Shown: piece by piece, positions 28,740-37,826 of the stretch
Layout of the letters: the number at the start of each line of letters is the position of its first letter
How positions within the stretch are numbered: position 1 is the first letter of the stretch
Assembly: GCA_022340385.1 (NCBI GenBank)
Contig: JAJDOB010000200.1
Coordinates: 1 to 39,421, forward strand
Length of the DNA stretch: 39,421 nt
DNA from: Rhodobacter sp.
GTDB lineage: Bacteria; Pseudomonadota; Alphaproteobacteria; Rhodobacterales; Rhodobacteraceae
Reading direction: 5' to 3'
Notes under the pieces: model-generated
What the model was told of the DNA's origin: nothing
Databases searched by the model: none
The model's input: the letters and a program-made list of their open reading frames with translations, nothing else
Position numbers and translations under genes: made by a program

Positions 28740-30131
28740 CTAGTACCTGTAGTGTTCCGGCTTGAACGGCCCCTCGGGCGGAACACCGATATAGGCCGCC
28801 TGCTCTTTGCTAAGCTCGGTCAGCCTGACGCCGATTTTCGCCAGATGCAGCCGCGCGACCTTTTCGTCCAGATGCTTGGGCAGGATATAGACGCCGGGCT
28901 TGTATTCATCCGGTTTGGTGAACAGCTCGATCTGCGCCAGCACCTGGTTTGTGAAAGACGCAGACATCACGAAACTCGGGTGCCCTGTGGCGTTGCCAAG
29001 GTTCAGCAGCCGGCCCTCGCTTAGCAGAATGATCCGGTTGCCTGACGGCATCTCGATCATATCCACCTGTTCCTTGATGTTGGTCCATTTGTGGTTCTTC
29101 AGCGCGGCAACCTGAATTTCATTGTCGAAATGGCCGATGTTGCCGACGATGGCCATGTCCTTCATCTCGCGCACATGCTCGATGCGGATCACGTCCTTGT
29201 TTCCGGTGGTGGTGATGAAGATATCTGCCGTGGCCAGCGCATCTTCCAGCAATACAACCTCGAACCCGTCCATCGCTGCCTGCAACGCGCAGATCGGGTC
29301 GACTTCGGTCACTTTCACACGGGCGCCTGCGCCGCGCAAAGAAGCGGCAGAGCCCTTGCCGACATCGCCATACCCCAAGACCACGGCGGTCTTGCCGGCC
29401 ATCATCGTATCGGTGGCGCGGCGGATCCCGTCGACCAGCGATTCCTTGCAGCCATATTTGTTGTCGAATTTCGACTTGGTGACAGAGTCGTTGACGTTGA
29501 TCGCCGGGAACGGCAACTGCCCCTTCTTGAACAGGTCATACAGGCGGTGCACGCCTGTCGTCGTCTCTTCAGAGACGCCAATGATGGCTTCGCGGGTCTT
29601 GGTGAACCAGCCGGGGCTTTCGGCCATGCGTTTCTTGATCTGCGCGAAAATCGCCTCTTCCTCTTCAGAGGTCGGTACCTCGATCAGGTCGGTTTCGCCC
29701 GCTTCGACCCGTGCACCCAGCAGAACGTACAACGTCGCGTCGCCGCCATCGTCCAGAATCATGTTGGGGCCTTCCGGGAAAAGGAAAGACTTGTCCAGAT
29801 AATCCCAATGTTCGACCAGCGACTGGCCCTTGATGGCAAAGACCGGCGTTCCGCCGGCGGCAATCGCGGCTGCGGCGTGATCCTGCGTGGAAAAGATGTT
29901 GCACGAGGCCCAGCGCACATCGGCACCCAAAGCAACCAGCGTTTCAATCAACACGGCAGTCTGGATCGTCATGTGCAGCGAACCGACGATGCGGGCGCCT
30001 TTCAGTGGCTGGCTTGCGCCATATTCTTCGCGCAGCGCCATCAGCCCGGGCATCTCCGTCTCGGCGATGGTCAGTTCCTTGCGGCCAAATTCTGCCAGTG
30101 CGATATCTCTTACGATGTAGTCCTTCGGCAT
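28740..30131 (-). CDS. ahcY: Adenosylhomocysteinase
   Basis: [75 protein letters not shown]-terminal KPEHYRY; start trimmed to 30131. Confidence 0.98.
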
Positions 30132-30539
30132 GCCGCCCGCGCTCCTGAATTGGGAAGTGTCGCCGTGCATTATCACCCGCTGCCTGCCCAAGCAACCACC
30201 TGATCTGCCGCCAATTTTGACGTAACATCCGGCGACGGCGGGCGAATATCGGTGAACAGGTCAATGCCGGAATCTTGCAGACGGCCGGCCATTTTCCACC
30301 GCTTGAACATCCGGGAGTTCTGCGCGTCTGCCTCGGCTATCTGACTGGAACTCGCCCGACAGGACGTTGCATGCCCCCGCCGGTCGAAATATCGTGATCC
30401 CGGTGCGCCGCTTGAAAATATGTTTCATCGCTGGCACGGCGGCAGCGGCGATCACAGACAGGACAGGGTTTGCCTGCAAGGCGACCGCAGCGCTGCGCTT
30501 TGACCAAGGCGTGGCGACGAAAACGAAAGAGGCGATCAA

Positions 30540-33501: not shown

Positions 33502-34896
33502 ATGGCTGAACAAAACCCCGGGCTTCTGGCGCAGGAGCCTCGCAGCAACTGGGTCAGGCTGCGCACGCTGATCGTGCTGCGCTGGATGGCCATCGCCGGA
33601 CAGCTTGCCGCCATCACCGTGGCGCAACGGTATTTCAACCTGACCCTGGAGCTCGGGATATGCTACGCCGCCATTGGCGCGTCGATCATTGCCAATCTGG
33701 TGGCGATCTTCGTCTACCCGGAAAACAAGCGCCTCAGCGAAGGCGAAGTGTTCCTGATGCTGCTGTTCGATATCAGCCAGTTGGCGGTCTTGCTGTTTCT
33801 TGCCGGGGGGCTGCACAATCCCTTTGCGCTGCTGATCCTGGCCCCGGTCACCATTTCCGCCACCGCCCTGAAAGCTCGATCCACGGTTCTGCTGGGCGCG
33901 GTTGCCATCGCCTTGATCACCATGCTGGTGTTCTTCCACATCCCGCTGCGCACCCAGCAGGGGTTTGTCATGCGTATGCCGGATATCTTCTTGTTCGGCT
34001 TCTGGGCCGCCATAACCATCGGGATCGTGTTCGAGGCGATCTATGCGCGGCGCGTGACGCAGGAAATCCACTCGATGGGTCAGGCGCTGCTGGCCACCCA
34101 GATGGCGCTGGATCGCGAACAGAAGCTGACCGATCTGGGCGGCGTGGTGGCGGCGGCGGCGCATGAATTGGGCACGCCGCTGGCCACGATCAAGCTGGTC
34201 AGCGCCGAATTGATGGAAGATCTGGCCGACCTGCCCGAACAGTATGACGATGTGGTGCTGATCCGCGATCAGGCCGACCGCTGCCGCGATATCCTGCGGT
34301 CCATGGGGCGGGCGGGGAAGGACGACCTGCTGCTGCGCCACGCACCGTTGGGCACCGTCATCCGCGAGGCCGCCGAACCGCATTCCGAGCGTGGCAAGAA
34401 AGTGGAAATCGACCTGCGGCCCGCCGATGGCGCCGACCCGGGGCAGCCGAATATTGCGCGCCGGCCAGAGATCATTCACGGATTGCGCAATCTGGTGCAG
34501 AACGCCGTCGACTTTGCCGAAACCACCGTCTGGATCGATGCCGTCTGGACGAATACCACCATCGAAATCCGAATCATCGACGATGGGGCCGGCTTTCCGC
34601 CGCACCTTCTGGGGCGTATCGGTGATCCGTTTGTGCGCCGCCGGCGCACTTCGGAAGAACGTCGCAAACGGCCCGGCTACGAAGGCATGGGGCTGGGGCT
34701 GTTCATCGCCAAAACGCTGCTGGAGCGCTCCGGTGCGGAGCTCGGGTTTGCCAATGCAAGCGATCCGTTGAGCCCGCGCAAGCCCGGTATCCGCAGCGGG
34801 GCGATTGTCGAACTTGCTTGGCCGCGCCGGATGATCACCCAAGCCGAGGAAAATCTGGGACGCGGGTTGGGCGAGAACCTTCCGATAGAGGCGTGA
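33502..34896 (+). CDS. regB: ActS/PrrB/RegB family redox-sensing histidine kinase
   Basis: Six-TM region, GGLHNPF quinone box, AAAHELGTPLATIKLVSAELMEDL H-box, DRCRDILRSMG, GMGLGLFIAKTLLERSGA. Confidence 0.97.
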   Translation: MAEQNPGLLAQEPRSNWVRLRTLIVLRWMAIAGQLAAITVAQRYFNLTLELGICYAAIGASIIANLVAIFVYPENKRLSEGEVFLMLLFDISQLAVLLFLAGGLHNPFALLILAPVTISATALKARSTVLLGAVAIALITMLVFFHIPLRTQQGFVMRMPDIFLFGFWAAITIGIVFEAIYARRVTQEIHSMGQALLATQMALDREQKLTDLGGVVAAAAHELGTPLATIKLVSAELMEDLADLPEQYDDVVLIRDQADRCRDILRSMGRAGKDDLLLRHAPLGTVIREAAEPHSERGKKVEIDLRPADGADPGQPNIARRPEIIHGLRNLVQNAVDFAETTVWIDAVWTNTTIEIRIIDDGAGFPPHLLGRIGDPFVRRRRTSEERRKRPGYEGMGLGLFIAKTLLERSGAELGFANASDPLSPRKPGIRSGAIVELAWPRRMITQAEENLGRGLGENLPIEA

Positions 34897-34904
34897 GCCG
34901 CAGC

Positions 34905-34920
34905 TTAACCCATCATTAAC
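34905..34920 (+). promoter_or_regulatory. CtrA-type binding site
   Basis: TTAA-CCCATCA-TTAAC matches TTAA-N7-TTAAC exactly; 42-57 nt upstream of the multi-PAS gene start. Confidence 0.6.
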
Positions 34921-34961
34921 CCGCGAAAAGCTATCGTGACCCGGGGTAGCCTTATGCGGAC

Positions 34962-36542
34962 ATGGCTGTGAAGGAACTGGGATCGGAACTGGTATTTTTG
35001 ACGCAGGCCGCGGGCCTGATCATCGCGGCTTTCGCGGTTGCGGTTGCGGCGCTTGTCGCCATGGCGCTGCGCCCGGACCGCGCGGCAGGCAAAGCTCCGC
35101 AATCCAGTTTGCCAAAGAGTGTCTTTATTTTCGACGGTGATGCGCTGGTCGATGCCACCGACGCCGCGCGCCGCCTGCTGGAACTGACACCGCCCTGCGA
35201 ATCCGACATTCAGCGTCTGGTAAGCTTTCTGGCACCGCGTTTTCCGGAACTGCCCGACAGCGTGATGCAAAGCAGCGAACGGCGGACAATTGTCATGACC
35301 TCGGCCGATGGGCTGTCCCGGTTGCACCTTCAGGTCGGGCCATCCCGCCTGCGCCTGACGCTGACCGATCTGGACGCCACGGCCCCGGGGCTGGACCAGC
35401 ACGGTCTGGCGGCACTCACGCAGGAATTGCAGATGCACCGCGCCGTGGCCGACCATACGCCGTTTCCGGTCTGGCGGCAGTCGGGCGACGGGCGCATCGT
35501 CTGGGCCAATGCCCAGTACTGCGCCTTGGCGGCCAAGCTGGGCTGGACCAGCCGCACGGCCCCGACCCCGCCGCGCATTTTCCCGACGGACCCGATTGCA
35601 GAGACTTCCTGCAAATCAATTCAGCGCACCCGCCTGGAACTGCCCGACGAGGACGAGCCTAGATGGTTCGAATATCAGGTGACCCAGATCGGCTCGGACG
35701 CCCTTGTTGCCGCATTTCCTGTCGATCGGGTGGTACAGGCCGAACGCAACCTGGGCGATTTCACCCAGACGCTGACGCAGACATTCGCGCATCTCAGCGT
35801 CGGACTTGCGATCTTCAACCGTAGCCGCGAACTTGCGGTTTTCAATCCGGCGCTGACCGATCTTCTGGGGCTTTCACCGGAATACCTGATCACCCGGCCG
35901 ACCCTGTTCCAGATGTTCGACCGGCTGCGCGAACACCGGCTGATGCCGGAGCCGAAGAATTACAAGACCTGGCGGCAGAAAATGTCGGAAATCGAAGCGG
36001 CAGCGGCTGACGGCGTGCATTCCGAAACCTGGTCGCTGGCCGACGGGCGCACCTATCGTGTGACCGGGCGCCCGCATCCCGCCGGCGCGGTCGCCTTCGT
36101 GTTCGAGGATATCAGCGCCGGTATCTCGCAGGAACGCCGGCTTCGCAGCGATCTGCAACTGGGACAGGCCGTTATCGACGGGCTGGACGAGGCGATGGCG
36201 GTATTCACACCATCAGGCGAACTGGCGATGTCCAATCGTGCCTATGCGAAACTTTGGGATGGGGCGTGCGATGCCGATGGCACCGCGACAAGATTTCTTG
36301 ATGCCTCCAGAATCTGGCAGAATGCCACCGTCCCGACGCCGGTATGGGGCGATGTCCGCGACTTTGCCGTCACCCTGACAGAGCGGACCAACTGGACCGC
36401 CGAGGTGCGTCTGCGCGACGGACGGCGGCTGAACTGCCGGTTCGACACCATGCCGGGTCGCTGCACCCTCGTCGGATTTTCCATCGGCCAGGATACCGCG
36501 CAGGCGCCGCGCTCGGACTTGCGCGAATCCGCATCGGCGTAA
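34962..36542 (+). CDS. Membrane-anchored multi-PAS-domain protein without a kinase or other output domain
   Basis: N-terminal TM; PAS-like segments (FPVWRQSGDGRIVWANAQYC; LSVGLAIFNRSRELAVFNPALTDLLGL; LDEAMAVFTPSGELAMSNRAYAKLW); no H-box or ATPase motifs. Confidence 0.85.
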   Translation: MAVKELGSELVFLTQAAGLIIAAFAVAVAALVAMALRPDRAAGKAPQSSLPKSVFIFDGDALVDATDAARRLLELTPPCESDIQRLVSFLAPRFPELPDSVMQSSERRTIVMTSADGLSRLHLQVGPSRLRLTLTDLDATAPGLDQHGLAALTQELQMHRAVADHTPFPVWRQSGDGRIVWANAQYCALAAKLGWTSRTAPTPPRIFPTDPIAETSCKSIQRTRLELPDEDEPRWFEYQVTQIGSDALVAAFPVDRVVQAERNLGDFTQTLTQTFAHLSVGLAIFNRSRELAVFNPALTDLLGLSPEYLITRPTLFQMFDRLREHRLMPEPKNYKTWRQKMSEIEAAAADGVHSETWSLADGRTYRVTGRPHPAGAVAFVFEDISAGISQERRLRSDLQLGQAVIDGLDEAMAVFTPSGELAMSNRAYAKLWDGACDADGTATRFLDASRIWQNATVPTPVWGDVRDFAVTLTERTNWTAEVRLRDGRRLNCRFDTMPGRCTLVGFSIGQDTAQAPRSDLRESASA

Positions 36543-36638: not shown

Positions 36639-37826
36639 ATGACCGCCCCGGCCCCGATCACTCAGGACGTCCACACCATCCCGCGGATGCTGCCCAGGAC
36701 AGACCGTGTCAATCTGCTTGGCCTGACACGCGACAATCTGCGCGATGTGCTGATCGCCGCCGGCACGCCGGAAAAACAGGCACGCATGCGTGTCGGACAG
36801 ATCTGGCAGTGGATCTACCAGAAGGGCGTGCGCGACTTCGACGCGATGACCAACCTTGCCAAGCCATATCGGGAAATGCTGGCCGCCCAATTCGAGATCG
36901 CGCTTCCCGAAGTGGTCACCCGCGAAGTCTCTGCCGATGGAACCCGGAAATACCTGGTGCGCATCGCCGGCGGACACGAGGTGGAAACCGTCTATATACC
37001 CGAAACCGACCGCGGTACGTTGTGCATTTCAAGCCAGGTCGGCTGCACTTTGACCTGTTCGTTCTGCCATACCGGCACCCAGAAACTGGTGCGCAACCTG
37101 ACGGCGGGTGAAATCATCGGCCAGGTGATGCTGGCGCGCGACGATCTGGGCGAATGGCCCGAACCCGGGCGCGCGCCCAAGAATGAATCGCGCCTGCTGT
37201 CGAATATCGTTCTGATGGGTATGGGCGAGCCGCTTTACAATTTCGAAGCCGTGCGTGACGCGATGAAGATCGCAATGGATCCGGAAGGCATTCAGCTGTC
37301 GCGCCGCCGCATCACCCTGTCGACAAGCGGCGTCGTGCCCGAAATCGCCCGGACCGCGCAGGAAATCGGCTGTTTGCTGGCCGTGTCGTTTCACGGCACC
37401 ACCGACGAGATTCGCGACAAACTTGTGCCGATCAACAAGAAATGGAACATCGCCACGTTGCTGGACGCGCTGCGCGCCTATCCGAAAGCCTCTAATTCGG
37501 AGCGCATCACGTTCGAATACGTGATGCTGAAGGGGGTCAATGACAGCGACGAGGACGCACGCCGCCTGGTCAACCTGATCAAGGGCATTCCCGCCAAGAT
37601 CAACCTGATCCCGTTCAACGAATGGCCGAATGCGCCCTATGAGCGGTCAGACTGGAACCGGATAGAGGCCTTTGCCGACATCGTCTACAAGGCCGGATAC
37701 GCCAGCCCGGTGCGCACCCCGAGGGGCGAGGATATCATGGCGGCCTGCGGCCAGTTGAAATCGGCAACCGAACGGACCCGGAAATCGCGCGCGCAGATCG
37801 CCACCGAGGCCGGACTGGCAGAGTGA
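36639..37826 (+). CDS. rlmN: 23S rRNA (adenine2503-C2)-methyltransferase
   Basis: [28 protein letters not shown] (CxxxCxxC), [37 protein letters not shown]. Confidence 0.98.

What the first reader, a model, noticed from the sequence alone, without database searches (positions are those of the whole stretch)
34905..36542. Exact CtrA box before a kinase-less multi-PAS membrane protein next to regB
TTAACCCATCATTAAC matches TTAA-N7-TTAAC in the 65-nt regB/PAS-gene gap, with a TATCGT -10-like hexamer downstream (34932-34937). The 526-aa product has a TM and several PAS-like segments but no H-box, ATPase, GGDEF or EAL motif. This suggests a sensory adaptor that may link the RegB/RegA redox system to the CtrA (motility/GTA/cell-cycle) network.
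Basis: partly seen in the sequence, partly recalled or inferred. Interest (0 to 1): 0.6.

Follow-up and report, generated by a model that had tools for sequence, protein, structure and literature searches.

The report
CtrA-controlled short DivL beside regB
The gene is the short, kinase-less form of the cell-cycle regulator DivL found throughout the Rhodobacteraceae, preceded by a CtrA-binding site that nearly all its relatives share, so it is a well conserved but already described feedback loop rather than a new sensor.

Summary
The exact TTAA-N7-TTAAC box at 34905-34920 lies in the 65-nt regB/PAS-gene gap. In one genome from each of 110 Rhodobacteraceae genera, the same gap holds an exact box in 99 and a box with at most one mismatch in 109; other spacings occur in 0-3 loci and shuffles give 0.3. 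regB is directly upstream in 106. The 526-aa protein (one TM helix plus four PAS folds, no kinase) is not an unknown adaptor. It is the short DivL of Rhodobacterales. Its family contains the published R. capsulatus divL primer site. Dinoroseobacter shibae and R. sphaeroides carry it in the same place. Full-length homologues in other Alphaproteobacteria carry the DivL pseudo-kinase with Tyr at the phospho-acceptor. CckA (also with a box), ChpT and CtrA are in the same genome. CtrA control of kinase-less divL in Rhodobacterales was predicted in 2010, and divL transcript falls in D. shibae ctrA, cckA and chpT mutants. Best reading: CtrA~P activates divL, and DivL promotes CckA kinase activity, a feedback loop. 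The proposed link to RegB/RegA rests on conserved adjacency only. Already known; low interest.

The parts
33502..34896 (+). regB, redox sensor histidine kinase; neighbour, not part of the CtrA circuit
   Evidence: NCBIfam NF045988 RegB equivalog, E 2e-236
34905..34920 (+). CtrA full site TTAACCCATCATTAAC (TTAA-N7-TTAAC)
   Evidence: conserved in 99/110 genera exactly, 109/110 with <=1 mismatch
34930..34937 (+). -10-like element GCTATCGT at the offset where relatives show a weak conserved pattern
   Evidence: sequence; positional composition of 98 aligned promoters; weak
34962..36542 (+). divL, short kinase-less form, 526 aa: TM helix plus four PAS folds
   Evidence: PAS only; model; orthology
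34965..35066 (+). N-terminal TM-length helix, residues 2-35
   Evidence: AlphaFold2 helix H2-35 and hydrophobic sequence
35733..36146 (+). most conserved core, residues 258-395 (third PAS and its flanking helices); holds 40 of 53 invariant columns
   Evidence: alignment A1; Pfam PAS_7 276-391

Best explanation
The gene is divL in its Rhodobacterales short form: a membrane-anchored array of four PAS folds that has lost the pseudo-kinase (DHp plus ATPase) end. Phosphorylated CtrA binds the box just upstream of the divL start, near the -35 region, and activates divL. DivL then acts on the hybrid kinase CckA to favour its kinase mode, feeding phosphate through ChpT back to CtrA. Since cckA in this genome has its own exact box, the circuit is a CtrA-driven positive feedback through both CckA and DivL. 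Shown here: identity, domain content, box and its conservation, presence of CckA, ChpT and CtrA. Shown by others in relatives: divL transcript depends on the CtrA relay; R. capsulatus DivL promotes CtrA phosphorylation. Inferred: direct CtrA binding here, contact of DivL PAS domains with CckA, and the sign of the loop in this species.
For: Box. Protein family: homologues in 138 of 150 high-quality Rhodobacteraceae genomes. Class-wide hits are mostly 780-950-aa ORFs; those scanned carry HisKA and HATPase, Tyr is at the phospho-acceptor in 22 of 26 fetched, and the one compared with solved structures (L122) has C. crescentus DivL 4q20 as best match, E 2e-54. Deep Rhodobacteraceae carry longer DivL (661-858 aa) with degenerate or missing kinase parts, again beside regB in most, linking long and short forms. 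The R. capsulatus divL qPCR primer printed in PMC9143464 matches exactly inside this family at PTLYAFL. G030 is D. shibae by its replicon lengths 190506, 152970, 126304, 86208 and 72296 (sizes in PMC9426580): one homologue only, beside regB, box TTAAGCGGGTATTAAC. Own genome: CckA with exact box upstream, ChpT, CtrA. Literature: PMC2877005 (Rhodobacterales: CtrA controls cckA and divL, DivL lacks kinase domain), PMC4046655 (site in divL promoter, divL down in ctrA/cckA/chpT mutants), PMC9430884 (short DivL), PMC9143464 (DivL promotes CtrA phosphorylation).
Against: No binding or expression data exist for this organism. In R. capsulatus the co-expression module holding rcc00042 fell in the ctrA but not the cckA mutant (PMC4158056), so phosphorylation dependence may vary. 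PMC6473078 labels a second gene (Dshi_3346, with kinase and receiver domains) as divL, so the literature name is not clean. ctrA itself showed no box in the stretch scanned upstream of its open frame.
Confidence: 0.88

Rival explanations
1. A distinct PAS adaptor that couples RegB/RegA redox signalling to the CtrA network.
For: regB adjacency in 106/110 genera and 79/80 named loci, persisting beside long DivL; RegA loss lowers the CtrA regulon in R. capsulatus and FnrL sites are predicted beside divL (PMC7232146).
Against: The protein is DivL by orthology, so no new adaptor is needed. The neighbourhood may have been inherited: outside the Rhodobacteraceae divL sits beside ahcY, and ahcY is also near the reg genes in this family. 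CtrA-relay mutants do not change regA/regB (PMC7232146). regB and divL are separated by the CtrA promoter.
Confidence: 0.08
2. The gene is DivL but CtrA represses rather than activates it, or the site is a relic.
For: CtrA sites can repress; no mutant data here.
Against: divL falls in ctrA, cckA and chpT mutants of D. shibae (PMC4046655), divL1 falls in ctrA and cckA mutants of P. inhibens (PMC11974857), and rcc00042 falls in the R. capsulatus ctrA mutant (PMC4158056). Repressor sites reported in Caulobacter overlap the -10 region (PMC6180460), whereas this box lies upstream of it. A relic would not be kept in 109/110 genera with variable N7.
Confidence: 0.04
3. Chance match to a short AT-rich motif.
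For: Genome-wide the exact motif is only about twice as frequent as its reversed control (23 v 13 hits).
Against: Same gap in 99/110 genera exactly, shuffles 0.29, other spacers 0-3; one box per 11.5 kb, always here, in 79/80 loci.
Confidence: 0.005

Closest known systems
Short DivL of Rhodobacterales (R. capsulatus rcc00042; D. shibae divL, probably Dshi_3433)
   Same: PAS-only product, no kinase part, CtrA site in its promoter, place beside regB in D. shibae and R. sphaeroides
   Different: Nothing of substance; sequence about 40% identical, and rlmN rather than another gene lies downstream in the window's close relatives
Full-length DivL of Caulobacter and other Alphaproteobacteria (PDB 4q20)
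   Same: Homologous tandem PAS region; regulator of CckA
   Different: Pseudo-kinase DHp and ATPase region missing; a CtrA box upstream is rare outside the family (3 of 26 fetched loci); sits beside ahcY rather than regB
RegB/RegA redox system
   Same: Direct neighbour, conserved
   Different: Separate promoter; no shared domain beyond regB itself; no evidence of joint function here

Membership tests
Short (kinase-less) DivL of Rhodobacterales | Homologous to the PAS region of DivL pseudo-kinases | tested here: met
   profile of this family finds long DivL-type ORFs class-wide; one of these has DivL 4q20 as best solved relative
Short (kinase-less) DivL of Rhodobacterales | No HisKA/HATPase in the protein | tested here: met
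   Pfam; alignment ends after the last PAS, before the DHp
Short (kinase-less) DivL of Rhodobacterales | Same family as characterised divL of R. capsulatus / D. shibae | tested here: met
   Published R. capsulatus divL primer falls in the family; unique D. shibae homologue. The locus-tag equation with Dshi_3433 is by position, not by a record
Short (kinase-less) DivL of Rhodobacterales | Genome has CckA, ChpT and CtrA | tested here: met
Short (kinase-less) DivL of Rhodobacterales | DivK absent | not tested
   Reported for Rhodobacterales (PMC9430884, PMC2877005)
Short (kinase-less) DivL of Rhodobacterales | Acts on CckA activity | not testable with these tools
   Reported for R. capsulatus DivL (PMC9143464)
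Full-length DivL pseudo-kinase | DHp with Tyr at the phospho-acceptor plus ATPase domain | tested here: not met
   Absent in the window protein; present in other orders
CtrA-activated promoter | Full site TTAA-N7-TTAA upstream of the gene | tested here: met
CtrA-activated promoter | Site near -35 of a mapped start | tested here: inconclusive
   Weak -10-like pattern at fixed offset; start not mapped, no sigma-70 consensus hit
CtrA-activated promoter | CtrA binding | not testable with these tools
   Needs ChIP or footprint

The most novel reading that the evidence does not exclude
The near-universal regB-divL pairing is functional: DivL's PAS array reads a redox or respiratory signal shared with RegB, so that membrane redox state sets CckA and hence CtrA output, replacing the lost DivK input.
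Probability: 0.1. Interest if true: 0.6.

Novelty: already known. Interest (0 to 1): 0.2.

Why it matters
It gives a gene annotated only by PAS domains its proper name, and shows at large scale (110 genera) that CtrA control of divL is a near-fixed feature of Rhodobacteraceae, as predicted from few genomes in 2010. The regB-divL-ahcY neighbourhood and the series long, degenerate, short DivL give a clear path for how the kinase part was lost in place. The unexplained point is why regB stays next to divL.

Tried and rejected
R. capsulatus itself was not identified among the held genomes; the second primer (CCTGTTCCAGTTCCGTCATCT) was searched only in the one-genome genus of G416 and not found, so the R. 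capsulatus link rests on the first primer and on the matching peptide PTLYAFL. The Westbye 2018 paper is not held. A plasmid search with a meaningless query was a wasted call. NCBIfam has no DivL model that hits. An exact CtrA peptide pattern missed CtrA because it has GADDYLTKPF; allowing three mismatches found it. The Foldseek search gives only other PAS arrays (PpsR, DosP, FixL) and the model's pTM is low (0.38), so no ligand was inferred. Chance and relic explanations for the box were rejected.

Full report
Observation. The window holds regB (33502-34896), a 65-nt gap and a 526-aa ORF (34962-36542). The gap holds TTAACCCATCATTAAC at 34905-34920 and TATCGT at 34932-34937. It is the only TTAA-N7-TTAA in the window, against 0.04 expected. 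The reading frames are right: RegB is a clear equivalog and the next protein has PAS domains only.

Conservation of the box. I took the homologue from one genome of each of 110 Rhodobacteraceae genera and asked what lies between regB and it. regB is directly upstream in 106; in the other four no upstream RegB match was found in the stretch fetched. The gap holds an exact TTAA-N7-TTAA in 99 and one with at most one mismatch in 109. Other spacers from 3 to 13 occur in 0-3 loci, and base shuffles give 0.29 loci on average. The seven spacer bases vary, so this is a selected site and not general sequence similarity. In 80 named loci, mostly 11.5 kb, an exact box lies right before this gene in 79, and only one of those has a further box elsewhere. 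Aligned promoters show T/C-rich bases after the box and a weak pattern at +27/+28 (A) and +31/+32 (T). The window's -10-like hexamer falls there, but I would not call it proven.

What the protein is. The family profile, run class-wide, finds matches in 122 of 193 genomes, mostly in long open frames. Of 26 fetched from other families most are 780-950 aa; the four of these that I scanned in Pfam carry HisKA and HATPase, and 22 of 26 have Tyr where a kinase has its phospho-acceptor His. The one I compared with solved structures has C. crescentus DivL (4q20) as best match, E 2e-54. Many sit beside ahcY, and in this family ahcY also lies near the reg genes (window 28740-30191). Deep Rhodobacteraceae carry longer DivL of 661-858 aa, beside regB in most, with weakened or missing kinase parts. 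The window protein ends after the last PAS. AlphaFold2 gives a TM-length helix and four PAS folds (domain-level confidence good, arrangement uncertain with pTM 0.38). This is the short DivL described for Rhodobacterales (PMC9430884, PMC2877005).

Anchors to studied species. The R. capsulatus divL qPCR primer in PMC9143464 matches exactly in genome G416 at PTLYAFL inside this family; that locus also has the box. G030 is D. shibae: its contigs are 3789584, 190506, 152970, 126304, 86208 and 72296 bases, fitting the 191, 153, 126, 86 and 72-kb replicons in PMC9426580. It has one homologue, beside regB, with box TTAAGCGGGTATTAAC. G046 has the replicon lengths that I recall for R. sphaeroides 2.4.1 (from memory), with box TTAACGGCCCCTTAAC.

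The circuit in this genome. CckA is on contig 15 with the exact box TTAACCAGCGATTAAC just upstream. ChpT is on contig 124 and CtrA on contig 174. Other exact boxes lie at a sigma-70-family (RpoH-like) gene and before a LuxR-type gene, like the rpoH1 and luxR2 sites reported in D. shibae (PMC4046655).

Mechanism. Published results carry the functional steps. CtrA sites lie before cckA and divL in Rhodobacterales without DivK (PMC2877005). divL transcript falls in D. shibae ctrA, cckA and chpT mutants (PMC4046655), divL1 falls in P. inhibens ctrA and cckA mutants (PMC11974857), and rcc00042 falls in the R. capsulatus ctrA mutant (PMC4158056). DivL promotes CtrA phosphorylation through CckA (PMC9143464, citing Westbye 2018). 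The simplest reading is positive feedback from CtrA through DivL and CckA.

RegB link. The pairing of regB and divL is very old, but it is position only. In R. capsulatus the CtrA relay does not affect regA or regB, while loss of RegA lowers the CtrA regulon, with chpT as the most affected relay gene (PMC7232146). The idea stays open and testable, at low probability.

Verdict.

Noticed in passing
Genome G000, contigs 17, 40, 169, 275 and ten further sites: A perfect 20-bp palindrome ATGTTTCGCGCGCGAAACAT occurs at 14 places in this genome (reversed control 0), four of them within about 40 bp of a TTAA-N7-TTAAC box; likely the operator of some regulator.
   Followed up: partly
L224, L227 (deep Rhodobacteraceae): Long DivL beside regB with His (SHRLRTPL) at the phospho-acceptor, where DivL of other orders has Tyr, while the ATPase domain is degenerate or undetected.
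   Followed up: partly
L115-L140: Full-length divL lies directly downstream of ahcY in most other Alphaproteobacteria fetched; in Rhodobacteraceae regA, senC and regB lie between ahcY and divL.
   Followed up: partly
window 36639-37826: rlmN follows divL only in the window's close relatives (4 of 80 named loci).
   Followed up: no
L144 (G122): The only one of 110 genera with no box, even with one mismatch, in the regB-divL gap.
   Followed up: no
G000 contig 15, L274: cckA of the same genome has an exact CtrA box just before its start.
   Followed up: yes
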